This document shows positions 1-12,301 of a stretch of DNA of 49,791 nt, piece after piece (position 1 is the first letter of the stretch; each line of letters opens with the position of its first letter). A program made the translations under genes and the position numbers. The stretch lies in the NCBI GenBank assembly GCA_016342495.1, contig JAEIOG010000029.1, forward strand, positions 1 through 49,791. Reading direction: 5' to 3'. The notes below the pieces were generated by a model. The model saw nothing but the letters and a program-made list of their open reading frames with translations, was not told the DNA's origin and did not search any database. This DNA is from Phycisphaerae bacterium. GTDB taxonomy: Bacteria; Planctomycetota; Phycisphaerae; Sedimentisphaerales; SM23-30.

Positions 1-50
1 CCCCCCAAAACAAGTGAAAAATTAGAGCTTAATTTTCTAATAGAATTGTC

Positions 51-557
51 TCATTTTGCTTGACAATTACCGCTTTTCTGTTTCAGATATGAGCCAAGAG
101 TGTCGTTGGCATTATTTAAGACTCCACTGAGAGTGTTGAGTCTTTGGCGTTGGTTGAGATAATCTTCTTGTTGGGTTTGAAGTTGCCTGATTTCTTGCAA
201 ATCAGGCAACTGGGTAGAAGGGGTGGTGTGGTTTAGGGTTGAGCGTAAATGATTGCCGATGATGGTTTTGTTTATATCACGAAAATGAGCTAAAGCAATA
301 TGGCATTCGGGGAAATGAGACAGTAAATAATCATGTAAGCCCGGTATGTCACGAGCCCAGGTCTGGCTTTCCTGGCTCATGGATCGCAGATAATATGATT
401 TTGAGCCTTTTATGAGTATCTTATCATCAATTTGGGCGATAATGATTTGAATGCAGTGTTTAGGGTGCCACCAGAGTTGCAATTGCAAATTGTATGTTAA
501 ATTCCCTATCAGCTTAAAACCACGCTGATTAATTATATCATCGACGGCGTTGGGCAT
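51..557 (-). CDS. Uncharacterised last gene of the ubiquitin-like operon (168 aa)
   Basis: I do not recognise this protein. The first 90 or so residues look like a compact alpha/beta domain with alternating hydrophobic strands and a WWHPKHC segment near residue 30. The region from about residue 120 is Gln/Leu-rich and probably helical or coiled coil. There is no signal peptide or membrane segment. The ATG at 557 is preceded by an AGGAG Shine-Dalgarno with 7-nt spacing and overlaps the end of the upstream zinc-protein gene by 20 nt, so the two are probably translationally coupled. As the last visible gene of an E1/E2/JAB operon it could be a substrate adaptor, an immunity partner or a diverged modifier, but nothing in the sequence decides. 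The operon may continue past the window edge, 50 nt away. Confidence 0.75.
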   Translation of the reverse strand: MPNAVDDIINQRGFKLIGNLTYNLQLQLWWHPKHCIQIIIAQIDDKILIKGSKSYYLRSMSQESQTWARDIPGLHDYLLSHFPECHIALAHFRDINKTIIGNHLRSTLNHTTPSTQLPDLQEIRQLQTQQEDYLNQRQRLNTLSGVLNNANDTLGSYLKQKSGNCQAK

Positions 558-1059
558 TTCGAGCTCCTGTTCTGGTGGGAGTTGTAAGTCTATATAGGGC
601 GATTCGGTCCTTTATGCCTTGTCTTCTGGATTGAAGGTACAATGCTTTCCTGCGCAAGGCATTTTGCCTGAGCTGTTGTTGGCGTCTAAATTTTTCTTTG
701 CTGAACATAATTTTGTCCATCATCCCCTGGCGTTTGTATAGTTTAGGTAAGCAACTACAGCATACCTGCAATAAACGCTGACCTACGAAACTATGGCGAC
801 AGCGACCACATATCCTTCGTCTGCAAGCATGACATATAGAAATGCATTGATTGCAAAGAGCATGACCGCAGCAGTCGCATCTTCCCATCCATTGAGTGAT
901 ATCATGTATTGGTCGATGACAACTGGGGCATCGTGTAGCTGATTGGATTGTTTCAGAGCGTATAGTTACGCCATCATCTATTATTTGCTCGGTTTGTCGA
1001 CCTATGATTTGTCCTTGTGGGCCTTGAATTAGGTTTTGTTTTATTATTCGGTTACTCAT
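538..1059 (-). CDS. Cys-rich RING/treble-clef-like zinc protein, putative E3 or adaptor (173 aa)
   Basis: The central segment (residues 44-103) contains C44-x2-C47, C61-x-C63-C64, C69-x2-C72, C76-x2-C79, C84-x2-C87 and C100-C101-x-C103. This is enough for three or four zinc sites with the closely spaced pairs of cross-brace RING or FYVE-like treble-clef domains. Prokaryotic RING-type domains (the Prok-RING families) are known to sit beside E1, E2 and JAB genes, so the family assignment is inferred from both the Cys pattern and the neighbourhood. The flanks are an N-terminal 40-residue Gln/Ile-rich part and a very basic Arg/Gln-rich C-terminal tail (residues 105-173), which suggests nucleic-acid or ribosome contact. 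The start at 1059 has a GGAGGT Shine-Dalgarno. Alternatives are a zinc-ribbon or DnaJ-type zinc scaffold without ligase activity. Confidence 0.8.
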   Translation of the reverse strand: MSNRIIKQNLIQGPQGQIIGRQTEQIIDDGVTIRSETIQSATRCPSCHRPIHDITQWMGRCDCCGHALCNQCISICHACRRRICGRCRHSFVGQRLLQVCCSCLPKLYKRQGMMDKIMFSKEKFRRQQQLRQNALRRKALYLQSRRQGIKDRIALYRLTTPTRTGARNAQRRR

Positions 1060-1122: not shown

Positions 1123-1974
1123 TTATGCATGATTATTGTTGACTTTGTCTGCAAATTTACCCTGGCAGTCTGGGCAATCTTTTTCATAGCCACCCTGGAG
1201 TGCGATACTGGTAAATGAGAAATTAGCTGAGCTGTCACCCAGATATTTTGCAAAGATATCTTTCTGGCCCATACGATATTCTGGGTCAATTTTGACCTGA
1301 ATTAAATTGCGATCACCAAGTTGTTCGATAAGTCTGCCCATACGGTTTTCTGAACCTCGTGTGAGGATACCCAGAGCGATCTGACCAGCGATTGCATCTA
1401 TGAGGTGTAAGTCAAAGATTGTGCCACCCGAACTTGGGGTAGCTGCTATACCATTTTGGAAGGCTTTGTACCTAGATGAGCATATACATCTGTAGCAAGC
1501 AGCTGTAGAGCTATCAGGAACATGGTAAATGATTTCTCCGGCACGAGCTCCAGCATACATACCGATGTATAATGCAGGTTTGTTGAGCCTAATAGCTTCG
1601 GTATTGCCCCTTGCTTGAGCTGGAAAGAAGTCTGTTGCCATTATGAACAAATCTGTATGACCAAATAATTCATCAAATTCTGATGGAGTAATGGAACAGA
1701 AGTCTCTGGCAAGGCAAGTAACTTCGGTTTGGGGATTGATGCGTCTTATAGTATCAGCTGTAGCTTGTATTTTAAGACGATTAATATCCTGGTTATCGAA
1801 ATCTTGGCGGGCAGGATTTGTTTTATCAACAGTGTCAAAATCAACCAAAGTGATAGATCCCATACCGCACCTGGCTAAGTCGCATGCCAATTGAAAAGCA
1901 CCTCCGACAATTGTTACATGGGATTGCTGCATAAGATTGACATTTACTGTATCTTTTATACGATCATAATTCAT
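1123..1974 (-). CDS. E1/ThiF-like ubiquitin-activating adenylyltransferase (283 aa)
   Basis: The Rossmann-type adenylation domain of the ThiF/MoeB/E1 superfamily is clear: a glycine-rich nucleotide loop VGGAFQLACDLARCGMG (residues 23-39), DFDTVDKTNPARQ (45-57) with the conserved D-x-D, Asn53 and Arg56, the Lys-containing helix ending in RRINP, and the switch Asp115 in MATDFF. Two Cys pairs, C160-x2-C163 and C267-x2-C270, match the structural zinc site of the family. E1-like enzymes adenylate the C terminus of a ubiquitin-like protein and pass it on as a thioester to an E2. I chose the ATG at 1974, 32 codons inside the longest open frame, because TTGGAG lies just upstream and because the longer form would run back into the JAB gene. 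The glycine loop is weaker than the usual GxGGxG. It is the fourth gene of the operon. Confidence 0.9.
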   Translation of the reverse strand: MNYDRIKDTVNVNLMQQSHVTIVGGAFQLACDLARCGMGSITLVDFDTVDKTNPARQDFDNQDINRLKIQATADTIRRINPQTEVTCLARDFCSITPSEFDELFGHTDLFIMATDFFPAQARGNTEAIRLNKPALYIGMYAGARAGEIIYHVPDSSTAACYRCICSSRYKAFQNGIAATPSSGGTIFDLHLIDAIAGQIALGILTRGSENRMGRLIEQLGDRNLIQVKIDPEYRMGQKDIFAKYLGDSSANFSFTSIALQGGYEKDCPDCQGKFADKVNNNHA

Positions 1975-2009: not shown

Positions 2010-2471
2010 TTATATTATTGTTAAGTCTGCAATCACAGGATTGTTGTATTGGCCTCTTAGCACCATCCATGGGATGAGTCTAAATTCTTCAGGAATGACA
2101 ATTGGAGCGATAAAAAAGTCATCGCGGGGGTTGCATTTCAGTAAGCGTTCAATATAGGTTAAGTCGCCTCCACTTAATCTGTCAAAACGATTGGGGTGAC
2201 TGTGAACTACCCCTTTCATTTCAATGCCTTCATCTGCCCATTCAGTTTTTAGTAAGTGCGTTAATTTTGCATAGTCTGGGGTGTATGTAGCTTTTGAGCA
2301 TTGGCCATCATTATCAAAATAGAAGTCTGATATTTCATTTTTATTAAGTGGCCCAAGAAGAATTCCGCCGGTTTCTGCGGGCTTTGTGCCGATGGTGTTG
2401 AATATTTTGGAGATAACGTTACGATGGCAGATTATATCCGGACTAATTTTTTTATTTTTATTTTTCATCAT
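2010..2471 (-). CDS. JAB/JAMM metalloprotease, putative Ubl isopeptidase (153 aa)
   Basis: The complete JAMM zinc signature is present: Glu33 in ETGGILLG, then His90-Ser91-His92-Pro93 with Ser100 and Asp103 in the pattern HSHP-x6-SGGD. The 153-residue length is that of a single catalytic domain without extra modules. JAMM peptidases of the Rpn11/BilC/Cap3 type cut isopeptide or peptide bonds after ubiquitin-like proteins, either to mature the modifier or to remove it from targets. The start is the ATG at 2471 (or 2468), with AAGGA upstream. It follows the E2-like gene by 18 nt and precedes the E1 gene by 35 nt. All active-site residues are intact, so the enzyme should be active. A role in pathways using other beta-grasp proteins (sulfur transfer) is possible, but the neighbours argue for conjugation. 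Confidence 0.92.
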   Translation of the reverse strand: MMKNKNKKISPDIICHRNVISKIFNTIGTKPAETGGILLGPLNKNEISDFYFDNDGQCSKATYTPDYAKLTHLLKTEWADEGIEMKGVVHSHPNRFDRLSGGDLTYIERLLKCNPRDDFFIAPIVIPEEFRLIPWMVLRGQYNNPVIADLTII

Positions 2472-2489: not shown

Positions 2490-2759
2490 TTATTGGGTGA
2501 TGCCAGTGCGACGATATTCCAACATATATTCGGCCCATTGGCCTGCAAGCTTTCGAGCTTTTTGGATATTGGCAGGCTCTTTACCTGCATAGAAACATAT
2601 TTTGCCACTGCGAAAAAGATGAGTTTTTTCAGGATTGGTATTCTTGCCATTAAAACCAGGGTGTTTATCGCAATAGATATTGCAAATACTGCCATTTTGG
2701 ACAAATCTGAATTTGAAGTAGTGTTGACCATTTTTAGATCGATAAGTTTCACTTGCCAT
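2490..2759 (-). CDS. Minimal E2-like (UBC-fold) conjugating protein (89 aa)
   Basis: The sequence carries the landmarks of short prokaryotic E2-like proteins: strands ending in FKFRF and CNIYC, an HPG turn (His33), then THLFRSGKICFY (residues 46-57) with a Cys at 55, followed by an amphipathic helix and WAEYMLEYRRTG near the C terminus. This resembles the (T/H)H-x-GxLC-x-Y ... WLxxYExWxxTG layout of the E2 domains in CBASS Cap2-like and other bacterial Ubl operons, with Cys55 as the presumed thioester residue. At 89 residues it is much shorter than a eukaryotic E2 (about 150). The ATG at 2759 has AAAGGA upstream. The assignment rests on pattern memory and on position between the acidic small protein and the JAB gene; it needs a profile search. 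An alternative is a small zinc or RNA-binding protein. Confidence 0.72.
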   Translation of the reverse strand: MASETYRSKNGQHYFKFRFVQNGSICNIYCDKHPGFNGKNTNPEKTHLFRSGKICFYAGKEPANIQKARKLAGQWAEYMLEYRRTGITQ

Positions 2760-2794
2760 GATATATTCCTTTCGGAGTAATAAGGTGAAAATTT

Positions 2795-2822
2795 GCTTGC
2801 CAGATCAATTAACCTGGCAAGC
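2795..2822 (-). terminator. Intercistronic hairpin after the first gene, possible attenuator
   Basis: GCTTGCCAG (2795-2803) and CTGGCAAGC (2814-2822) form a perfect 9-bp stem with a 10-nt loop in the gap between the 96-aa gene and the E2-like gene. On the transcribed minus strand it is followed by a short A/U run rather than a strong U-tract. This would let part of the transcripts stop after gene 1 and so give more of the first protein than of the enzymes. Confidence 0.55.
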
Positions 2823-2839: not shown

Positions 2840-3130
2840 TTAGATTGCATCAGGGTGTGTAAGGTGATCAGGCTTGGCATCATCGTCTTCTGAGAAATGC
2901 TGCTGTGGATCATCAGAGCAAACCACATCATTATCAGAAGTGCCATCAAAGTAGTTCAAACCTGGGATTTCCATATTTTCAGGATAAAGATGATGGAATG
3001 TGCCTGATTCTAATTCATTGCCATGAAAAGTTCCTGGTTCAAGTTCATTACCAGCGAAGCTACCAGCGATAAAGATTTGCACATTATTATTGACTTTGTT
3101 CACGATAGCTTTTTTTGCAAATTTGTTCAT
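2840..3130 (-). CDS. Small acidic protein, first gene of the Ubl operon (96 aa)
   Basis: I cannot assign this protein. The N-terminal 20 residues are basic (MNKFAKKAIVNK), followed by VQIFIAGSF and a tandem 10-residue duplication (GNELEPGTFH then GNELESGTFH, about residues 27-46). The last 35 residues are rich in Asp, Glu, His and Pro (SEDDDAKPDHLTHPDAI). It has no Gly-Gly C terminus and no clear beta-grasp pattern, so it is not an obvious ubiquitin-like protein. However, it is first in the operon, small, and followed by a hairpin that could raise its dose over the enzymes, as expected for a modifier or dedicated substrate. AAGGA precedes the ATG at 3130. Its role is unknown. Confidence 0.7.
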   Translation of the reverse strand: MNKFAKKAIVNKVNNNVQIFIAGSFAGNELEPGTFHGNELESGTFHHLYPENMEIPGLNYFDGTSDNDVVCSDDPQQHFSEDDDAKPDHLTHPDAI

Positions 3131-3695
3131 TATTAGTTTCCTTAAAAAATAGTTAATTAAATTATTGAATAAACAGTGGTTGGGGTATATTTATGGAATT
3201 TTCATGATTGCACCTCCTTTTGGGTTTGGGGATTGAGAGTTATCGTTTTCTTGTTTAAGAATATTTAATTGTTGCAACAGGTTTGTATATTGCAATAGAT
3301 GTGCCAACAAAAAAATAATAGTGAAAATATTTAAGTTGAAATTCAGAAATGAGATGAATGTCGCCACCTGTTTGCATGCTAGTAGAAGAAGGAGAAGCGT
3401 TTTTGGATGCGTAATGCTTAGGTATGATAAGTCTATGTGTGTAAGCCAGTTATGAGGGATTTGTCAGTGATAAGCAGTGTTAGAGATTGATTGTTAAATA
3501 GGCATGTGTGGTCGGGATATATTTTTGAATGAAAATTTATTTAAAATTTGATCATTAGCAATTATTGTTGGAAATTAAATCATGAATAAAAGTAAAAAAA
3601 ATTGCAATAAAGTAAATAAAGTTGTAAAATGTCATGATAGGTTTACTAAATATCTTGGTAATTGTTTCTGTATATATTCATGATTGGAGAGTTTT
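3131..3695. other. Divergent intergenic region between the Ubl operon and the CARF regulator
   Basis: This 565-nt gap has no convincing gene. It holds the minus-strand sigma-54 promoter at 3291-3307 and, in the leader of the Ubl operon (3203-3218 on the minus strand), an unusually strong AAGGAGGTG ribosome site followed by ATG and a four-codon frame (Met-Lys-Ile-Pro-stop, 3205-3191). The A+T-rich 3400-3690 part is where enhancer sites for the activator would be expected. I see no clean inverted repeat there beyond weak matches. No sigma-54 element facing the regulator was found. Confidence 0.6.
3291..3307 (-). promoter_or_regulatory. Sigma-54 (-24/-12) promoter of the Ubl operon
   Basis: On the minus strand the sequence is TTGGCAC-ATCTA-TTGCA: the -24 element TGGCAC at 3306-3301 and the -12 element TTGCA at 3295-3291, separated by exactly 5 nt. 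This matches the sigma-54 consensus TGGCAC-N5-TTGCW at every defined base. Transcription would start near 3280, about 150 nt before the first gene. The divergent gene encodes a sigma-54 activator, which makes chance occurrence unlikely. Confidence 0.85.
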
Positions 3696-5219
3696 ATGGC
3701 AAAAATTCTATTAACATGGCTCGGTGTAACTGATATTAATTCTTCTAAGCAGGATTCTGGCGGGAATTTAGGGCCAATTGCAGGAGCGGTCATTGATCGT
3801 AAATACAAAACGGTATTTATTCTTTCCGATTTTGCGAAGCCAGTCTCTAATAAATATAAAAAATGGCTGAAAAGCACCGCAAAGGTGACCGCTATAATTA
3901 GAAATGTGGATTTAAAAGATCCTATGGACTTTGGGAGTATATATGAATTTGCCAGGCAGTTGGTAATTGATGTATGTAAGGAGTATATTGCAGAAGATAT
4001 TGTATTTGATTTAAGTCCAGGCACTCCCGCTATGGCTGCAGTTTGGATAATTCTTGGTAAAACCATTTTTCCCCAGGTTGAATTGATAGAGTCTTCAATG
4101 CAGGATAAGAAGGGTAATTATCATGTAAGGACAACATCTGTACCTTTTGATATTTCGGCCGCAGTTATAATGGATATGCTTTCAAATCCGGACGAGAAGT
4201 TGAAACTTATGGCACAGAGTTTGCCTCCAAAGACTGCTGATTTTCCCGAAATAATCTATAAATGTAAGAAAATGGAAAGAGTAATTGCTATGGCACGCTT
4301 GGCCGCAGTAAGAAATGTACCAGTTTTAATTTTAGGAGAGTCTGGTACTGGTAAAGAATTGGTTGCGCAAGCGATACATACAGAGAGTCTTAGGGGAAAT
4401 AAGAAATTTGGGGAAATAAACTGTGGAGCATTATCTCCTTCATTGGTTGAATCAGAATTATTTGGGCATGTAAAGGGTAGTTTTACGGGAGCGACCAAGG
4501 ATAAAGAGGGGCTGTTTTGTGTCAATAAGGGGGGGACGCTTTTTCTTGATGAAATTGGAGATTTAGATTTGTCTCTTCAGGTGAAATTACTTAGAGTGAT
4601 TCAGGAGAAAAAAGTGGTCCCCGTTGGAAGTGGGGATTCGTGTAAAGTCGATGTGAGAATTATTGCAGCAACTCATAGAGATTTGATGGGGGATGTCGCA
4701 AATGGTAAATTCAGAGAAGATTTATTTTATAGATTAGCAGTAGCAGTGATTTGCATCCCTCCTCTGAGAGAAAGGGGAGGAGATATTGATTCTTTGACTG
4801 ATTTTTTCATGGCCAAGATAAATGACGAATTTGGAGATGAGCAGCCTTGTTATAAGGGGCCTAAAAAGATATCACATAATGCGAGAATAATGCTTCGCAA
4901 TCATCAATGGCCGGGCAATATAAGAGAACTTCAAAATACATTAATGCGAGCGGCAATATGGTCTACAGGAGAAACCATAAAAAAACAGGATATTCTCAAC
5001 TCCATTATACAGATTCGTTCAAAATCAGATATTGATTTATTGAATCAGTCATTGGGGCCACATTTTGAGATTAAAAATATTGTGGATATAATTGTCAAAC
5101 ATTATTTCAGTAGAGCTCTTAAAGCATCTGGAGGAAACAAGACCGTTGCGTCACGATTAGTAGGTCTTCCAAATCATCAAACGTTTACTAATTGGATGAA
5201 GAAACACAAGGTGGATTAA
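3696..5219 (+). CDS. RtcR-like CARF-sigma-54 transcriptional activator (507 aa)
   Basis: Residues 1-160 look like a CARF-type Rossmann sensor: strands MAKILLTWLG and TVFILSDF, then DPMDFGSIYEFA and the ligand-loop-like DLSPGTPAM (about 106-114), where RtcR has TTGTH. Residues 180-420 are a sigma-54 AAA+ domain: Walker A GESGTGKE (about 214-221), the sigma-54 contact loop GSFTGA (261-266) in place of GAFTGA, Walker B TLFLDE (about 281-286), and the arginine-finger segment FREDLFYRL. The C-terminal GGNKTVASRLVG segment is a Fis-type HTH. RtcR is known to activate RNA-repair genes through its CARF domain, but no rtcBA genes are here. The ATG at 3696 is chosen over an upstream TTG because TGGAG sits 7 nt before it. 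It probably controls the divergent Ubl operon and perhaps the helicase operon 36 nt downstream. Confidence 0.92.
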   Translation: MAKILLTWLGVTDINSSKQDSGGNLGPIAGAVIDRKYKTVFILSDFAKPVSNKYKKWLKSTAKVTAIIRNVDLKDPMDFGSIYEFARQLVIDVCKEYIAEDIVFDLSPGTPAMAAVWIILGKTIFPQVELIESSMQDKKGNYHVRTTSVPFDISAAVIMDMLSNPDEKLKLMAQSLPPKTADFPEIIYKCKKMERVIAMARLAAVRNVPVLILGESGTGKELVAQAIHTESLRGNKKFGEINCGALSPSLVESELFGHVKGSFTGATKDKEGLFCVNKGGTLFLDEIGDLDLSLQVKLLRVIQEKKVVPVGSGDSCKVDVRIIAATHRDLMGDVANGKFREDLFYRLAVAVICIPPLRERGGDIDSLTDFFMAKINDEFGDEQPCYKGPKKISHNARIMLRNHQWPGNIRELQNTLMRAAIWSTGETIKKQDILNSIIQIRSKSDIDLLNQSLGPHFEIKNIVDIIVKHYFSRALKASGGNKTVASRLVGLPNHQTFTNWMKKHKVD

Positions 5220-5255: not shown

Positions 5256-8200
5256 ATGGCCAATAACATGAACCAAGATTCAAGTAAATCTTTACTTGAA
5301 AGCATTCTTGTATTGATGTCTTCTGAGCAACAAGAACATTTTCTTAAATATTCTTCAGCTGAGGAGATTATCTACGCCAATAAGCTACCTGTTTTTGATC
5401 AGCAATTATCTATTTTACTTACAAAGAAGGTTTATTATCATTGGGTTGAAATATATAAAAAGGAAATATTATCAGATGTTTCTACGTTGCAAAATGCTTT
5501 TGAGGTACAGTTTTATTTAGATGAATTAAAGAACTGTTTGGAGATGGGAGTCAGTTTTCATACTTTGCATTGGAAGGAGGGGAATGATGGTGAAGAGAAA
5601 GCATTTGTGTATATTCAGTCAAGTCTGCTTGAAATGAAATGTATTATGGAGACAGGGCTTAATAAAAAGGCATACTTTAAAGCAATTCATTCAAAATCAT
5701 TCAATGAATTTCAAAAAGATAGGATAAAAACCAAAAATGAGAGTTTTGTGTCATCGGAGGTATTTGGGGAAGATGTTCCCATAGACACTGATGTTATAGA
5801 TGTTGGTGAAATAATTCATGACCACCAAATATTGAATAAAGGTAAGCCGAAACAATTTATTCCGCAAATTAAAATGATCTGGAATGTTCATTCTCCCTAT
5901 TCGCAGGAGATACAGCGTTTCGATTCTGAAGCAGTTCTTAAAATTATCTGGGAGAATTTTAACAATCAAAGATTAGCAATGGTACTTAAATGGACACGTA
6001 AACACTTGAGGGAGCTCGGGGATATTGTTAATCTTGGTCAACTTGCAATGCAATTTAGATATGAACTTGTTAGTCAGACAGAGACCTCCAAGGGTAGATA
6101 TTGTAAAATTAAAATTAATGCCGCACAAGAAGATATTGCTAATATGAAATTGGCATGTGTGTATGCAGAGGACAAAGAGGCGGATAATAAAAATGGAAAT
6201 AACTTCCGCAATATTAAGCAATTTTTAAAGCGTAGATTGAAAAAAGCATTAATATTAGAAATGGAAGATTGTAAGGGTGATATTTATTATTGTAATATTT
6301 TTGGGACAGAAGAGATGCCTTCTGAAGGATTACTCGTTGATGTTGGGTTAGAATCGCAAATTAAGAAAAAAATTGAGGCGATGCATAACGTCTCTTTCTC
6401 AAAAGGTATGGTTCACCTTTTGAAATTAGCAACTTTACTAGGCAAGGTTGGGAAGTCAAAACTAGAATTATTTAGCTGGGATGATAAGAAGTTAAAGCTA
6501 TATGATGAATTATTAACAGGGCGACAACGTGAAGCAGTTTTGAAAGCTTTGAATACCCCGGATATCTGCCTGGTCCAAGGTCCTCCTGGAACTGGGAAGA
6601 CCAGAATTATCTCTGAAATTGTCCAACAAGCATCCAAAAGGGGTTATAAAATACTACTGACCGCACCCACACATGTTGCAGTTGATAATGTTTTGGAGCG
6701 ACTTGGTTGTGATGATAACACTAGTCCCATCCGTTGTGTTAATAAGGATAAGTTGGAAAGTCTCCCAGAGCATATACGCCAGTTTACTTATGAACAAAGA
6801 AAATCAACCTTGGCAGTAAACTCTCAGAAAAGAGTGAAAGCTGATATTTATGCTTTAAATAAAGAAAAGCTTAGGCTTGTAAATGTGTCCAATATGATAC
6901 AGAGACTATGTACTCTTCATGATGATAAAGTCAAGTTACTAAGAAAAGAAAAGCGTTTAATAAAAAAATATGCTTCTATAGAAAAAACTGTTAAAGAAAA
7001 ATTTGCTGAAAAATTAAATATTAGTGAAAGAATAAAACTTGAAAGAGAAAATATCCTTTATGGATTTAGGCAACATTATGCACTTATTGATAATGAAGTG
7101 AAAGTTCTTAGATTAAGATGTAAAGAATACAAGTCAGATCAATATACTGATATAGATAAAAACAGATTTGATCTTGGTCAGTTAGGAGTCGATAGAAATC
7201 AAGGTAAGTCTCTAGGTGTTGCAAGATCAGAATATAGTCAGGCTAATATTGATAGGGACGAAATTAAAAGACAAATTGAGCAAACTGGTGCTAAGTTGGG
7301 AAAAATTAAAGAAACACTTTTACTCTTAGGTAAGGGAGAAGTCCCAGCAAATATTTATAAGATCATTCGAGGTTCAATAAGCAGCCTCGAAAAACAACAG
7401 GCCCACATTGTTGCTAAAAAATGTGTTAAATTAAAAGAAACTAAAAATAATTTATGTAAACATAATGAGGAAGTATGTATTTTAAGGAATACGATTAACG
7501 AATTGGAGACAAAGCAGAGAGCGTCTGAGAATATTAAGCATAAACCATTGTTGAGTAAGCTATTTAATGGGGTTTGGTGGCAATCTAAATTTAATGATTA
7601 TCAGGCTCAAGAAACAATACACAAAAGGTTACTTGCTGATTCTTTAGTGACTATAGCTCGCTTGGAAACAGCGATAGAAAAGTTAAAGCTTCGTTGGGAA
7701 AAAAGTAAGCAAGACAAAAATGAAAAGCTAGATGCTGCTTATAAGTCAGAATTGATCACTCAGAATTATTTGTTAAAATCTAATGAAGAAGAGTTAGCTT
7801 TAGCATTAAGTTCTATGAATGGACAACTTCAGCAAAAAAACACAACTATTGAAAGCCTGGATGAAAAAGTTAAATTGTTACAAAAAGATTATGATCGGGC
7901 TTCTGGCCAGATCATTCAAGCAGTTAAAAAACAACTGCATAAAGAACTTGTAAATCAAATCAAAAAACTCCGCAAAGATTTGGTCGTGTGCAAAGCTGAT
8001 ATAGTCATAGCTAATAATATATACTGTAAAGCTAAAATTGATTTTGAAAAAATACAGTTAAAAGTTTTGGAATCAGTCAAAGATAAAGTGCAAAAAAACG
8101 AATCAGATATTGAAAAGCTTAACAAGGATATTCATGTAAATAATTCGACTACTTTGCAATTGCAATGTCAAGCAGCTTTGTTTTTTTGCGGTAAGCCACC

Positions 8201-9539
8201 AGATAAGCCATCAGCAAGGAAAAAAGTTTTAAAGGAATTGGAGGATCAATTAAGTCAAAATGAAAGAAGGATAGCTTTTTCGGAGAGTTGGCTAGATTGT
8301 CTTCGGCGCAATACAGAAAGTCTTTCTCTACGTTTAGCAAAATATACTAACCTTATTTGTGCCACCACAATTGGTATTGCTAGTGATGACTATTTTGGAG
8401 ATGGCAAACCTTTTGAACAGAAAGAGTTCGATTTACTTATTATTGATGAGGCGGGGAAAGTTACTGAGCCTGAGTTTCTGGTAGCGGCAACCAGAGCAAA
8501 AAAATGGGTGATAGTTGGGGATCATAAACAGTTGCCTCCTTATTATGATCGTAAACTCAATGATATTTTCTTGGGAGTAAATAAATTACGTAGTCAGGAT
8601 AATTTGTCCATGCTTGATCCTATTGGATTACAAATTAGTTATTTTGAGAATCTTTGGAACCAATTAAGTGTTAAAGGAGATGGTATTGATAAGGCAAAGG
8701 CTCGTTTGGTGACACTTGATGTTCAAAGAAGAATGCATCCAGATATTGCGAGATTTATTTCAGATATGTTTTATCCAAATGAGTATAACTCTCCTGATGA
8801 ACCTGAGTTCTTACAGGAAAAAACATTGGAACTATCTCGGTTTAAATGTGCGATAACATTTATCGAAGTAATACCTCCCAAGGCAGTGAAAGGTTATGAA
8901 GCCAATCTGAACTTATGGGATAATCGTAAAGATTTAAAATTGTTTAGTAAAACTGGGTATGCCAATCTTACAGAAGCAAGAAAAATGGTAGAAGTTTTAG
9001 TTAATCTTCTTGGGGAAGAAAGTGTTTTTGCTGAACAGAGAGAACTTAATGATAAAAATGACTCATCATCGGCCATTGGAGTGATAGCTTTTTATGCAGG
9101 ACAAGTGGAATTGATAAGTGAATTAATTAAAGAAGAACCATTTCTGGAAGCAGAGGAATTATCCAGTGCTGGGCATTTTTTATGTAAGGGAAAGGTCAAT
9201 GTTACAGTGAATACTGTTGATTCATTTCAGGGCAAGGAATGTCCAATTGTAATTTTGAGTTTTACGAGGAGTAATTCATGTCAAAACATTGGTTTTGTCA
9301 AAAACTCCAATCGCTTGAATGTCGCAATGAGTCGAGCAAGAAAAAAACTTATTTTGTTAGGTGATACAAAAACTTTTGTACATAGAGCTATGATGGATGA
9401 AAGCAAGATCAAAGGCGATGATACGAGGTCAATATCTGCCGAAAGTATCTTCTTTAAGAAATTAGTGCAATATATTGAAGGATATGGCGAAATTAAGAAG
9501 GCGTTTCATGTGTGGAGGCAAGAAAATGGCTCCGTTTAA
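5256..9539 (+). CDS. UPF1-like SF1 helicase with large coiled-coil insertion (1427 aa)
   Basis: All SF1 helicase motifs of the UPF1/DNA2-like branch are present: Q-motif region TGRQREAV, Walker A QGPPGTGKT (about 441-449), Ia TAPTHVAVDNVLERL, motif II LLIIDEAGKV (about 1061), III VGDHKQLPP, IV LDVQRRMHP, V NTVDSFQGKE and VI NRLNVAMSRARKKL (about 1352). Around 600 residues lie between motif Ia and motif II. They are Lys/Glu/Leu-rich and predicted by eye to form long coiled coils, far beyond the normal 1B/stalk region. The N-terminal 430 residues are unassigned. Such proteins unwind RNA or DNA in 5'-3' direction; large versions recur in phage-defence operons together with PLD nucleases. The ATG at 5256 follows GAGGG, 36 nt after the activator gene. 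Confidence 0.93.
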   Translation: MANNMNQDSSKSLLESILVLMSSEQQEHFLKYSSAEEIIYANKLPVFDQQLSILLTKKVYYHWVEIYKKEILSDVSTLQNAFEVQFYLDELKNCLEMGVSFHTLHWKEGNDGEEKAFVYIQSSLLEMKCIMETGLNKKAYFKAIHSKSFNEFQKDRIKTKNESFVSSEVFGEDVPIDTDVIDVGEIIHDHQILNKGKPKQFIPQIKMIWNVHSPYSQEIQRFDSEAVLKIIWENFNNQRLAMVLKWTRKHLRELGDIVNLGQLAMQFRYELVSQTETSKGRYCKIKINAAQEDIANMKLACVYAEDKEADNKNGNNFRNIKQFLKRRLKKALILEMEDCKGDIYYCNIFGTEEMPSEGLLVDVGLESQIKKKIEAMHNVSFSKGMVHLLKLATLLGKVGKSKLELFSWDDKKLKLYDELLTGRQREAVLKALNTPDICLVQGPPGTGKTRIISEIVQQASKRGYKILLTAPTHVAVDNVLERLGCDDNTSPIRCVNKDKLESLPEHIRQFTYEQRKSTLAVNSQKRVKADIYALNKEKLRLVNVSNMIQRLCTLHDDKVKLLRKEKRLIKKYASIEKTVKEKFAEKLNISERIKLERENILYGFRQHYALIDNEVKVLRLRCKEYKSDQYTDIDKNRFDLGQLGVDRNQGKSLGVARSEYSQANIDRDEIKRQIEQTGAKLGKIKETLLLLGKGEVPANIYKIIRGSISSLEKQQAHIVAKKCVKLKETKNNLCKHNEEVCILRNTINELETKQRASENIKHKPLLSKLFNGVWWQSKFNDYQAQETIHKRLLADSLVTIARLETAIEKLKLRWEKSKQDKNEKLDAAYKSELITQNYLLKSNEEELALALSSMNGQLQQKNTTIESLDEKVKLLQKDYDRASGQIIQAVKKQLHKELVNQIKKLRKDLVVCKADIVIANNIYCKAKIDFEKIQLKVLESVKDKVQKNESDIEKLNKDIHVNNSTTLQLQCQAALFFCGKPPDKPSARKKVLKELEDQLSQNERRIAFSESWLDCLRRNTESLSLRLAKYTNLICATTIGIASDDYFGDGKPFEQKEFDLLIIDEAGKVTEPEFLVAATRAKKWVIVGDHKQLPPYYDRKLNDIFLGVNKLRSQDNLSMLDPIGLQISYFENLWNQLSVKGDGIDKAKARLVTLDVQRRMHPDIARFISDMFYPNEYNSPDEPEFLQEKTLELSRFKCAITFIEVIPPKAVKGYEANLNLWDNRKDLKLFSKTGYANLTEARKMVEVLVNLLGEESVFAEQRELNDKNDSSSAIGVIAFYAGQVELISELIKEEPFLEAEELSSAGHFLCKGKVNVTVNTVDSFQGKECPIVILSFTRSNSCQNIGFVKNSNRLNVAMSRARKKLILLGDTKTFVHRAMMDESKIKGDDTRSISAESIFFKKLVQYIEGYGEIKKAFHVWRQENGSV

Positions 9540-10785
9540 GATCAGTATTGAGGCGAAAAAACAAATTTGGGATACACATTCACAAGCTGAAGGTGATTTT
9601 GCGATTTTTCTTTCTAAGTGCTATTTCCACGCCATAGAAGCTTGCGTATCGGTAAGTAAGTGTGAAAATATGGATGAATTTGAGCATTTTGTTTTGAAGG
9701 CGGTTGTTCTTTTAGATGTTGCAGGCATTGAGGAAATCAATAGTCTTCTTCATATAGGAAGACAAGTTATTAAAAGGATTGTGGTCAAGTTGGTCGCCGA
9801 TGAGCTATTGGTAGAGGTAGATGATGGTGTCATTGAGATAACAAAATTAGGTAGAAAAGTTGTTGAAACCAAAGTTATGATGAAACTTGAAAAAAAACGG
9901 CATATATTTCATTTTTTAGATGGAAGTAATGCATTTTTGCAAATAAACAATAATCATAGGTTTTTGATAGATTTGCAGGCTAACGAAACTCCAGTAGAGT
10001 GGCGTTTTGATGTTGATTCTTTACGGAGGTGCATAAACCAAACGGATGGCTGGAAGAAACAACAACAATTTCCAACTGAAATTTTTGACTTGATTACATC
10101 ACATGGGCAAGATTTAATGACCGATATCGATGTTGAAAGCACACTTATTGTGGATAAGGCTCAGGTGGCTAATTGTGCAATCCTAGTTAAGTATACTGAG
10201 AGTAAACCATCTGGGTTGTTTGCATATCCTATTTCATTAAATGGTCGATTATTGGGTGCTGATTGGTTATTTTCCCTAAAAGGTGAGGATGAGATACTTA
10301 GTGCATTTCCTTGTATCACGAATGTCCCTGATTCAGAGGAATCTAAGGTAGCTTTTATGTTGTCTGGTAGAAGATATTTTCTAAAGGATTTTGATGATAT
10401 ATCTGTCGAGAGTCAAAAAACCTGTACTGCCATTAAGGTTAGAAATGACAGTGATGTCAATTGGGCCAAGTTTTATTGGCAGAATTTTCAGGGGAATGTT
10501 TTTTTTGATATTGAATTGGGAAAAACAATTAAAATGAACAAGTTAATGATTATCGGCAAAAGCGATAAGCTGCGTATGGTAAAGCATCTATATACACTCA
10601 ATAAGTCATGTGTTGCTGATGACCACCTGAAAGATTTAGCTACATATAGATCCTGGCTAAGTGAGCAGGTGCATTTGGCAGATGAGCCAATTAGAGATTT
10701 GACCTCATTAGCATGGGATATAGACAATTACAGATTGGCTTACGATTTAGCTGAATTAGAGGATATAGAAGATGCCAAAATATAA
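9526..10785 (+). CDS. Unknown winged-helix-containing protein of the helicase-PLD operon (419 aa)
   Basis: I do not recognise a named family. Residues about 45-115 look like a winged helix (VLLDVAGIEEINSLLHIG ... VIKRIVVKLVADELLVEV ... ITKLGRKVVE). The rest is mixed alpha/beta and without known catalytic motifs. There is no signal or membrane segment. The start at 9526 is chosen over an in-frame ATG at 9475 because TGGAGG lies 7 nt upstream and because it leaves a 14-nt overlap with the helicase stop, the same overlap as at the next junction. It is probably a DNA/RNA-binding or sensor subunit acting with the helicase and the PLD protein, inferred only from operon structure. Confidence 0.85.
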   Translation: MAPFKISIEAKKQIWDTHSQAEGDFAIFLSKCYFHAIEACVSVSKCENMDEFEHFVLKAVVLLDVAGIEEINSLLHIGRQVIKRIVVKLVADELLVEVDDGVIEITKLGRKVVETKVMMKLEKKRHIFHFLDGSNAFLQINNNHRFLIDLQANETPVEWRFDVDSLRRCINQTDGWKKQQQFPTEIFDLITSHGQDLMTDIDVESTLIVDKAQVANCAILVKYTESKPSGLFAYPISLNGRLLGADWLFSLKGEDEILSAFPCITNVPDSEESKVAFMLSGRRYFLKDFDDISVESQKTCTAIKVRNDSDVNWAKFYWQNFQGNVFFDIELGKTIKMNKLMIIGKSDKLRMVKHLYTLNKSCVADDHLKDLATYRSWLSEQVHLADEPIRDLTSLAWDIDNYRLAYDLAELEDIEDAKI

Positions 10786-12301
10786 TATTAATTATGGAGA
10801 CGCACAGATTGATGGCGGACTATTTCTAAAGCGTAAATCTGTTGTCTCTTCATCGTTAGAATATAAAGATGGAGAAGGAGATCAATTTAAGCATCTTTCA
10901 ACATTCTCGGGAAGATCAACAATTAAAGAGAGTATTATTGCTGCTTTAAAGAATGCTAAACGATATGTTTTTTTTACAAGTTTTTTAATACAAGATGAGC
11001 AGATAATAGAAAGCTTAATTGATTGCGTAAAAAGGCTAAAGGGGCATGTGTATGTGCTTACGACATTGAAGGATCGGGATTTTGATGAGCTTGCAGTGAT
11101 GAAAGGTGAGGGGGATTTTGATCAATGGAATTTTAAAGAACATATGGAAGGCATAAAGGAGCTTGTTCGAAATGGTATTTCAGTAAAAGCAAGAAAAGAT
11201 TGTCATGCCAAATTTGTGGTGATTGATGATAAATATGCTATAATTACAAGTGCAAATTCTGTGCCAACATGTTTTGCCGATATACCCCAAAAGAATGGTT
11301 TTGTCCGAGAAGCAAATCCTGAAAATGGAGTTTTGATTGAAATGCATCTGGAAGTACTCCGTCTTTCCAATTTCTTCCGATATATTTGGCGTTCTGCTTA
11401 TAATTATTACATGTCTCCTGACTCTCAGGTTTTGGATATATGTGAGTTTAGCAAAAATATAATTCCTATTGCTTGTCGAGAGCCAGCGATAGTGCCAGGT
11501 AAAGATCAAGTGATTTGGACAGCACCGAATGACTATCGAATTTTGGAATCACTGGTAAAAATGATTGATATGGCTGAACATAGTGTTTGTATTAGTTCTT
11601 GGGTTATTAAAGGCATTAAGGGCCATTTGTTAGCTCAAAAGCTTGTACAGGCTACCGAGCGAGGCGTTGAAATTGAGATTTTACTTCGAGGTATGTATCG
11701 TAGCGATCATCTTGAAAGTTGTTATTTTCTTAAACAGAGTTTGGGTAAACAGATTAAGATTTTAGGTGATTTTTGTAATCATTCAAAGGCTGCTCTTGTT
11801 GATAACAAACAGGCTATGTTAATGTCAGCAAACATTGATTCTCAGCATGGTTTAAATTCATCTGTTGAAGTTGGTTTCTTGTCAACCAATCCAGATTTCG
11901 TCGAATCGGTTTCAAATTATTTGAATCGACTTAGAGCGGGATGTGTTTTAGAATTTATTGCAAATCCGACTCAAAATCATGCTGCTCAAAATCATGCCAC
12001 TTTATATAAGCCTGTTATCAAAGATGATTTTATGTTAAACGTTGAACAAAAATGGAAAGGGAGGGACCAAAAAGTGAATAAATTGCTCACGGAAATGAAA
12101 AGTCAGTTGATAAGGGTGTCGTCGCCGCGGGGTAAAAATGGCCAAGAGATGAGTTTGTATACGAATAATATGATTATTGATTGTGTCAGGCAGGATGCGA
12201 AATCATTAAATGTTTTGAGAATAAATGAAACTCCCAGAGCTGCAAGCTTACATTTTCGACATATATTGTCAAAGGTTAAGATCAAGATCAATGTGAGTTG
12301 A
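10772..12301 (+). CDS. Phospholipase D-family protein with two HKD motifs, putative nuclease (509 aa)
   Basis: Two PLD half-sites are visible: CHAKFVVIDDKYAIITSAN (His near residue 145) and NHSKAALVDNKQAMLMSAN (His near residue 337), each H-x-K-x4-D followed by a Ser/Ala-Asn strand. Two HKD motifs in one chain form a single active site, as in PLD-type nucleases and lipases. With no signal peptide and a helicase partner, nucleic acid is the likelier substrate. The C-terminal 100 residues hold a short repeat (QNHAAQNHA) and an unassigned tail. The gene overlaps its upstream neighbour by 14 nt and converges with the truncated sensor gene, overlapping its end by 33 nt. PLD plus helicase pairs occur in DISARM and other defence systems, but the other DISARM genes are absent. 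Confidence 0.9.
   Translation: MPKYNINYGDAQIDGGLFLKRKSVVSSSLEYKDGEGDQFKHLSTFSGRSTIKESIIAALKNAKRYVFFTSFLIQDEQIIESLIDCVKRLKGHVYVLTTLKDRDFDELAVMKGEGDFDQWNFKEHMEGIKELVRNGISVKARKDCHAKFVVIDDKYAIITSANSVPTCFADIPQKNGFVREANPENGVLIEMHLEVLRLSNFFRYIWRSAYNYYMSPDSQVLDICEFSKNIIPIACREPAIVPGKDQVIWTAPNDYRILESLVKMIDMAEHSVCISSWVIKGIKGHLLAQKLVQATERGVEIEILLRGMYRSDHLESCYFLKQSLGKQIKILGDFCNHSKAALVDNKQAMLMSANIDSQHGLNSSVEVGFLSTNPDFVESVSNYLNRLRAGCVLEFIANPTQNHAAQNHATLYKPVIKDDFMLNVEQKWKGRDQKVNKLLTEMKSQLIRVSSPRGKNGQEMSLYTNNMIIDCVRQDAKSLNVLRINETPRAASLHFRHILSKVKIKINVS

What the first reader, a model, noticed from the sequence alone, without database searches (positions are those of the whole stretch)
2490..2759. An 89-residue E2-like protein with a single candidate catalytic Cys
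THLFRSGKICFY followed by WAEYMLEYRRTG resembles the active-site and C-terminal signature of Cap2-type bacterial E2 domains, but the whole protein is only 89 residues. It would be among the smallest free-standing E2-like proteins.
Basis: inference. Interest (0 to 1): 0.7.

Follow-up and report, generated by a model that had tools for sequence, protein, structure and literature searches.

The report
Miniature E2-like protein in mobile operon
An 89-residue bacterial protein, predicted to be a cut-down version of the enzymes that attach ubiquitin, sits in a mobile gene cluster with a ubiquitin-activating-type enzyme, a JAB peptidase, a zinc-finger protein and a tiny repeat peptide but no recognisable ubiquitin, so the cluster may tag or process proteins with something other than a normal ubiquitin.

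Summary
The 89-aa ORF is real (minus strand, 2490-2759), under purifying selection, and has orthologues in planctomycetes and a few other MAGs. A shallow-alignment AlphaFold model (pLDDT 80) is three strands, an active-site-like loop and one helix. All 50 best structural rows are E2/UBC domains; the best is the stand-alone CBASS E2 of Serratia (Z 7.3, 85 of 89 residues). This is moderate evidence: Foldseek E is above 0.3 and no sequence profile links it to any known E2 family. His47 is invariant in 16 homologues, Cys55 is kept (14 in register, 2 shifted) and Trp75 is kept in 12. The gene nearly always accompanies a ThiF/E1-like enzyme and a JAB peptidase, usually also a FYVE/RIM-type zinc protein and a HerA ATPase. 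No beta-grasp ubiquitin-like protein was found. Instead every operon whose flank is available encodes a 20-99 aa peptide with one to four GTFH-type motifs. In this genome the operon has a perfect sigma-54 promoter beside a CARF/RtcR-type activator, and its HerA gene is split by a multicopy insertion sequence. E2-like reading: partly supported; catalysis untested.

The parts
2490..2759 (-). 89-aa miniature E2-like (UBC-like) protein; His47, Cys55, Trp75
   Evidence: ORF; orthologues; AF2 model and structure comparison
2840..3130 (-). 96-aa repeat-peptide gene: AGNELEPGTFH GNELESGTFH motif, acidic tail; first gene of the operon
   Evidence: GTFH-type motif in 15 of 16 operons, the 16th cut by its contig end; motif occurs nowhere else in this genome under the pattern used
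2783..2822 (-). Stable RNA hairpin (GCTTGCCAGGTTAATTGATCTGGCAAGC) between the peptide gene and the E2-like gene, possible attenuator or partial terminator
   Evidence: z = -5.7; a hairpin lies at the same place in seven orthologous operons
2010..2471 (-). JAB/JAMM peptidase, complete motif (E33, H90, H92, S100, D103)
   Evidence: Prok-JAB 9e-7; alignment; PDB JAMM matches
1123..1974 (-). ThiF/E1-like adenylating enzyme, two CxxC zinc pairs, no other invariant Cys
   Evidence: ThiF 9.1e-22; alignment; profile best matched by UBA5, 8.8e-16
538..1059 (-). 173-aa zinc protein: six CxxC pairs, FYVE/RIM-type treble clef, then a long coiled coil
   Evidence: 12 invariant Cys; AF2 model and matches to RIM2, rabphilin and FYVE domains
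51..557 (-). N-terminal part of a HerA/DUF87-type ATPase gene, interrupted by an insertion sequence
   Evidence: Relatives are about 720-746 aa with DUF87; remainder on contig C127
1..53 (.). End of a multicopy insertion sequence at which the contig stops
   Evidence: A 23-base piece occurs 21 times in the genome, nearly always at contig ends
3291..3306 (-). Exact sigma-54 -24/-12 site TGGCACATCTATTGCA upstream of the operon
   Evidence: 0 mismatches; 2 such sites in the window against 0.12 expected
3696..5219 (+). Divergent CARF-AAA-HTH sigma-54 activator (RtcR_PspF2 type), probable regulator here
   Evidence: PADLOC RtcR_PspF2 4e-175; not found beside the orthologous operons

Best explanation
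The 89-aa protein is a minimal UBC-like (E2-like) domain reduced to three beta strands, the active-site loop and one helix. It works in trans with the neighbouring E1-like enzyme, JAB peptidase and zinc protein of a mobile-element operon. Most likely route: the JAB peptidase trims a precursor, the E1-like enzyme adenylates a freed C-terminus, Cys55 of the mini-E2 takes it as a thioester (His47 assisting), and it is transferred to a target held by the zinc/coiled-coil protein. The likeliest cargo or target encoded in the operon is the GTFH-motif peptide, because no beta-grasp ubiquitin-like protein is encoded. Shown here: ORF, conservation, operon and peptide motif. Predicted: fold. Inferred: order of reactions, thioester on Cys55, identity of the cargo.
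For: AF2 model pLDDT 80, pTM 0.67, E-E-E-loop-H. VIA-align top 50 rows are all E2/UBC: CBASS CdnG-E2 Z 7.3 (85 aligned, rmsd 2.4), UBE2D2, UBC13, UBE2S, UFC1. The aligned ranges put Cys55 within a residue or two of the catalytic Cys (1..89 on UBE2D2 32..117, whose catalytic Cys is 85; inference). His47 is invariant and Cys55 kept. Co-occurrence with JAB and E1-like genes in 16 operons. JAMM motif intact; E1 adenylation residues intact. Peptide motif in every operon with available flank.
Against: Foldseek E-values above 0.3, and Z below 8 can be a common arrangement. No sequence profile reaches any E2 family. Helix 1 and the C-terminal helices of a normal E2 are absent. The E1-like enzyme has no invariant Cys apart from its zinc ligands, so a thioester relay is unsupported on the E1 side. 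In two of the most distant homologues the Cys is shifted. No Ubl was found.
Confidence: 0.55

Rival explanations
1. It is a catalytically silent UBC/RWD-like adaptor: it binds the E1-like enzyme, JAB or the GTFH peptide, and Cys55 and Cys30 are structural.
For: Two conserved cysteines (C30 and C55) instead of one; only one helix and very short; inactive RWD-like E2 relatives beside E1-JAB proteins are known in bacteria (Iyer 2006, PMC1779556).
Against: His47 and Cys55 are among the most conserved positions and lie in the E2 active-site order.
Confidence: 0.2
2. The operon makes a modified peptide (RiPP-like): the E1-like enzyme adenylates the GTFH peptide as MccB or PaaA do, JAB matures it, and the small protein is a peptide-binding partner.
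For: Precursor-like short peptides with 1-4 repeat motifs; the E1 profile also matches PaaA (6.5e-12) and MccB (2e-11); the E1-like enzyme lacks an invariant catalytic Cys.
Against: No transporter or other tailoring enzyme was seen; instead a HerA ATPase and a zinc/coiled-coil protein; the best E1 match is UBA5; JAB and an E2-like fold point to conjugation.
Confidence: 0.13
3. The fold is not UBC but another beta3-alpha domain (for example a nucleic-acid-binding domain of the mobile element).
For: Shallow alignment of 10 sequences, pTM 0.67, no significant Foldseek hit, no sequence support.
Against: 50 of 50 best structural rows are E2s, whereas the same procedure on the zinc protein gave a mixed list; constant E1-JAB linkage.
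Confidence: 0.12

Closest known systems
CBASS stand-alone E2 (CdnG-E2, Serratia marcescens, PDB 8hsb/8yjy)
   Same: Best structural match (Z 7.3, 85 residues, rmsd 2.4); a free-standing bacterial E2 without a dedicated Ubl
   Different: About 159 aa against 89; 9-12% identity; partner is a CD-NTase (cGAS-like), none in this operon
Cap2-type and other Prok-E2 domains (Pfam Prok-E2_A, _B, _E)
   Same: His, then Leu/Ile-Cys, then helix order; linked to E1-like and JAB genes
   Different: No profile similarity; those models span 163, 135 and 123 positions and are often fused to E1
BIL/Bub-type bacterial ubiquitin-like operons (Ubl, E2, E1, JAB)
   Same: E2-like, E1-like and JAB genes in one operon
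   Different: No beta-grasp Ubl found; a GTFH-motif peptide instead, plus zinc protein and HerA ATPase
UFM1 pathway (UBA5, UFC1)
   Same: The E1 profile's best PDB match is UBA5 (8.8e-16); Foldseek's top-ranked match for the mini-E2 is UFC1 (E 0.32)
   Different: No UFM1-like protein; the UFC1 match is statistically weak
Microcin C7 / pantocin E1-like peptide enzymes (MccB, PaaA)
   Same: ThiF-fold enzyme beside a very short peptide gene
   Different: As far as I know they have no E2-like, JAB, zinc or HerA partners

Membership tests
UBC/E2 superfamily | UBC core: beta-meander, active-site loop, following helix | tested here: met
   AF2 model and 50/50 top VIA rows E2, Z up to 7.3; moderate only, Foldseek E above 0.3
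UBC/E2 superfamily | N-terminal helix 1 and C-terminal helices of the canonical fold | tested here: not met
   89 aa, one helix; aligns to residues 41-147 of CdnG-E2 and 32-117 of UBE2D2
UBC/E2 superfamily | Conserved catalytic Cys | tested here: met
   C55 in 14 of 16 in register, Cys 1-2 columns away in the other two
UBC/E2 superfamily | HPN-type motif before the Cys | tested here: inconclusive
   His47 invariant, 8 residues before Cys55, but no Pro-Asn after it
UBC/E2 superfamily | Thioester formation and transfer | not testable with these tools
   Needs biochemistry
Prok-E2_A/B/E and Cap2-type E2 (Pfam, NCBIfam, PADLOC) | Match to a family profile | tested here: not met
   No hits; hhalign null against Prok-E2_E and Prok-E2_A
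BIL/Bub-type operon | Beta-grasp ubiquitin-like modifier encoded in the operon | tested here: not met
   No Ubl among the operon proteins scanned; the only extra small gene is 20-29 aa in one family
CBASS | CD-NTase (cGAS-like) gene beside the E2 | tested here: not met
   None among the window's neighbouring genes scanned and none recognised by eye beside the orthologues
RING E3 (173-aa partner protein) | Cross-brace RING fold | tested here: inconclusive
   Matches FYVE/RIM-type treble clefs, which are related to but distinct from RING; NOT4 RING only at E 0.79
JAB/JAMM peptidase (partner) | E-HxH-S-D metal motif | tested here: met
   E33, H90, H92, D103 invariant; S100 conserved in most
E1/ThiF (partner) | Adenylation residues and catalytic Cys | tested here: inconclusive
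   Adenylation and zinc residues invariant; no further invariant Cys, C165 in 12 of 13
RiPP peptide pathway (MccB/PaaA type) | Short precursor peptide beside a ThiF-like enzyme | tested here: met
   Peptides of 20-99 aa; E1 profile matches PaaA and MccB
RiPP peptide pathway (MccB/PaaA type) | Peptide is chemically modified and released | not testable with these tools
   Needs mass spectrometry

The most novel reading that the evidence does not exclude
An E1 / mini-E2 / JAB conjugation system whose modifier or obligatory substrate is not a folded ubiquitin-like protein but a short peptide with repeated [DE]-[ILV]-x-x-G-T-[FL]-H motifs, spread by integrative elements in planctomycetes.
Probability: 0.25. 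Interest if true: 0.85.

Novelty: new variant of a known kind. Interest (0 to 1): 0.6.

Why it matters
If active, this would be one of the smallest free-standing E2-type enzymes and would show which part of the UBC fold suffices for transfer. The missing Ubl and the constant GTFH peptide raise a testable question: can an E1-E2-JAB cascade run on a short peptide tag? The operon's mobile setting and, in this genome, its CARF/sigma-54 neighbour and a nearby Mokosh-like gene set suggest a defence or mobile-element role.

Tried and rejected
Direct profile searches of the 89-aa protein and 15 homologues in Pfam, NCBIfam and PADLOC gave no E2 family. PDB sequence profile searches gave nothing relevant. 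Profile-profile comparison with Prok-E2_E and with a Prok-E2_A alignment built from plasmid proteins was null. A viral-contig search returned three false matches: an unrelated phage protein sharing a CDKHPGF stretch. No plasmid homologues. The zinc protein as a classic RING: the model resembles FYVE/RIM zinc fingers instead. The sigma-54 regulator as part of the conserved system: it is not beside orthologous operons. The GTFH motif as a mimic of the lambda-family portal: one viral contig match lies in a portal gene and portals share a loose PG-[TE]-[FM] stretch there, but one match is no more than chance would give (my estimate) and the motif's His is not kept in the portals read; left as a lead only.

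Full report
Observation. The 89-codon ORF is on the minus strand at 2490-2759 with a good ribosome-binding site. The protein has three cysteines: C26 is found only in the window, C30 is conserved in most homologues, and C55 is conserved throughout the family, with a one- or two-column shift in two distant members. Synonymous sites are near saturation in most pairs while pN is 0.1-0.3, so this is a selected protein, not a chance ORF.

Relatives. In the host's order 5 of 160 other genomes encode an orthologue at E below 1e-20. A scan of 84,980 species genomes found nine loci, in planctomycetes, one Victivallales MAG and one MAG labelled Babeliaceae. A profile search in the phylum found distant members in one further family. 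No plasmid homologues were found. The family is rare and patchy.

Operon. In transcription order the window carries a 96-aa repeat-peptide gene, the mini-E2, a JAB peptidase, a ThiF/E1-like enzyme, a 173-aa zinc protein and the start of a HerA-type ATPase. The same order is found in the orthologous loci L023-L031, with a second JAB gene in L027 and L030 and with integrases or serine recombinases close by in several. Distant members keep mini-E2, JAB and E1-like genes; four also keep an ATPase gene of HerA type (by eye) with a coiled-coil gene in place of the zinc protein. One mini-E2 gene, in L041, stands without JAB and E1-like genes beside it. The JAB motif is intact. The E1-like enzyme keeps the adenylation residues and two zinc CxxC pairs but has no other invariant cysteine. 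Its profile matches UBA5 best, then MoeB and ThiF, and also PaaA and MccB. The zinc protein has six invariant CxxC pairs; its model matches RIM2, rabphilin and FYVE zinc fingers rather than a classic RING, followed by a long helix.

Fold. AlphaFold2 with ten orthologues gives pLDDT 80 and pTM 0.67: strands 2-7, 14-22 and 25-32, a loop carrying His47 and Cys55, and a helix 65-85. Foldseek ranks UFC1 first but without significance (E 0.32). The second alignment puts E2/UBC chains in all 50 rows: the CBASS stand-alone E2 from Serratia at Z 7.3 over 85 residues, then many eukaryotic E2s at Z 4-5. Z below 8 can reflect a common arrangement, so I weigh this with the context and with the position of Cys55: on UBE2D2, model residues 1-89 span 32-117, which places Cys55 beside catalytic Cys85 (inference from the ranges). 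Sequence profiles find no known E2 family. The fair statement is: E2-like fold, probable; member of a described Prok-E2 family, not supported.

The peptide. In 15 of 16 operons a short gene beside the mini-E2 encodes a [DE]-[ILV]-x-x-G-T-[FL]-H type motif (V for T in one), in one to four copies. The sixteenth (L028) is cut by its contig end just upstream. The peptide is 20 aa in some operons (for example MKYVVFGIEELEDGTLHTGR in L040) and has tandem copies with a period of 10, 11 or 15 residues in others. In the host genome the motif pattern occurs only in this gene. A strong RNA hairpin separates the peptide gene from the mini-E2 gene in the window and in seven orthologues, which could make the peptide more abundant than the enzymes (inference). 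No beta-grasp protein was recognised. The peptide is therefore the natural candidate for cargo, substrate or ligand of the cascade. Which of these it is cannot be decided by sequence.

State of this copy. The first 53 bases of the window are the end of an insertion sequence present about 21 times in the genome. It splits the HerA-type gene, whose remainder lies on contig C127, followed by a small HTH-type gene, a tyrosine integrase and a tRNA-Arg. The operon is therefore probably part of an integrative element, and this copy's last gene is broken; intact copies exist elsewhere.

Regulation. An exact sigma-54 promoter lies at 3291-3306 on the operon's strand, next to a divergent CARF-AAA-HTH activator of the RtcR_PspF2 type. 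[quoted passage not shown] This link is local: the activator is not beside the orthologous operons.

Mechanism and rivals. The best reading is a minimal E2 acting with the E1-like enzyme and reversed or primed by JAB (0.55). Rivals are an inert UBC/RWD-like adaptor (0.2), a RiPP-like peptide pathway (0.13) and a non-UBC beta3-alpha fold (0.12). In CBASS, Cap2 joins cGAS rather than a free Ubl to targets and needs its E1 and E2 activities (PMC10097602), so a system without a Ubl has precedent.

Novelty. Bacterial E1-E2-JAB operons have been described since 2006 (PMC1779556). None of the five operon types described there combines a mini-E2 with a GTFH peptide and a HerA ATPase. The key 2009 survey was not held and the primary BIL/Bub papers were not found in the library, so novelty is judged against the libraries and the papers that were held.

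Noticed in passing
window 2840-3130 (minus) and L016, L023-L031, L040-L045, L054: Short peptide gene with one to four GTFH-type motifs beside every mini-E2 operon whose flank is available; 20 aa in some genomes.
   Followed up: partly
window 1-53; G000 contig C127: A multicopy insertion sequence (21 matches to its end) splits the HerA-type ATPase gene; the rest of the gene, a tyrosine integrase and tRNA-Arg(acg) lie on C127.
   Followed up: yes
window 3291-3306 and 3696-5219: Perfect sigma-54 promoter upstream of the operon next to a divergent CARF/RtcR-type activator; the regulator is not conserved with the operon.
   Followed up: partly
window 5256-12301: Large SF1 helicase (MkoA-like, 1.7e-105), a 436-aa protein and a 509-aa protein that looks PLD-like by eye: resembles a Mokosh-type defence set.
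   Followed up: no
window 538-1059 (minus): Bacterial zinc protein whose predicted fold resembles eukaryotic FYVE/RIM zinc fingers followed by a coiled coil.
   Followed up: partly
window 2783-2822 and L023-L027, L029, L030: Strong hairpin between peptide gene and mini-E2 gene in every operon folded; its sequence differs, its position does not.
   Followed up: partly
L082 838-861: The only viral-contig match to the EPGTFH-type pattern is in a lambda-family portal gene; several portals have a loose PG-[TE]-[FM] stretch there. No more than chance by count.
   Followed up: partly
L024-L027, L030 against the peptide genes beside them: The longer mini-E2s begin with an hhxxGxF segment that resembles the start of their own operon's peptide (for example VILSGTF and VILRGVF).
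   Followed up: no
L023 (MAG labelled Candidatus Babeliaceae): The closest orthologous operon (E1 about 75% identical) is in a MAG assigned to a different phylum: recent transfer or mis-binning.
   Followed up: no
window 12269-48411: Sulfatases, glycoside hydrolase-like and sugar ABC transporter genes and repeated proteins with C-terminal sorting-like tails (PEP-CTERM-like by eye).
   Followed up: no
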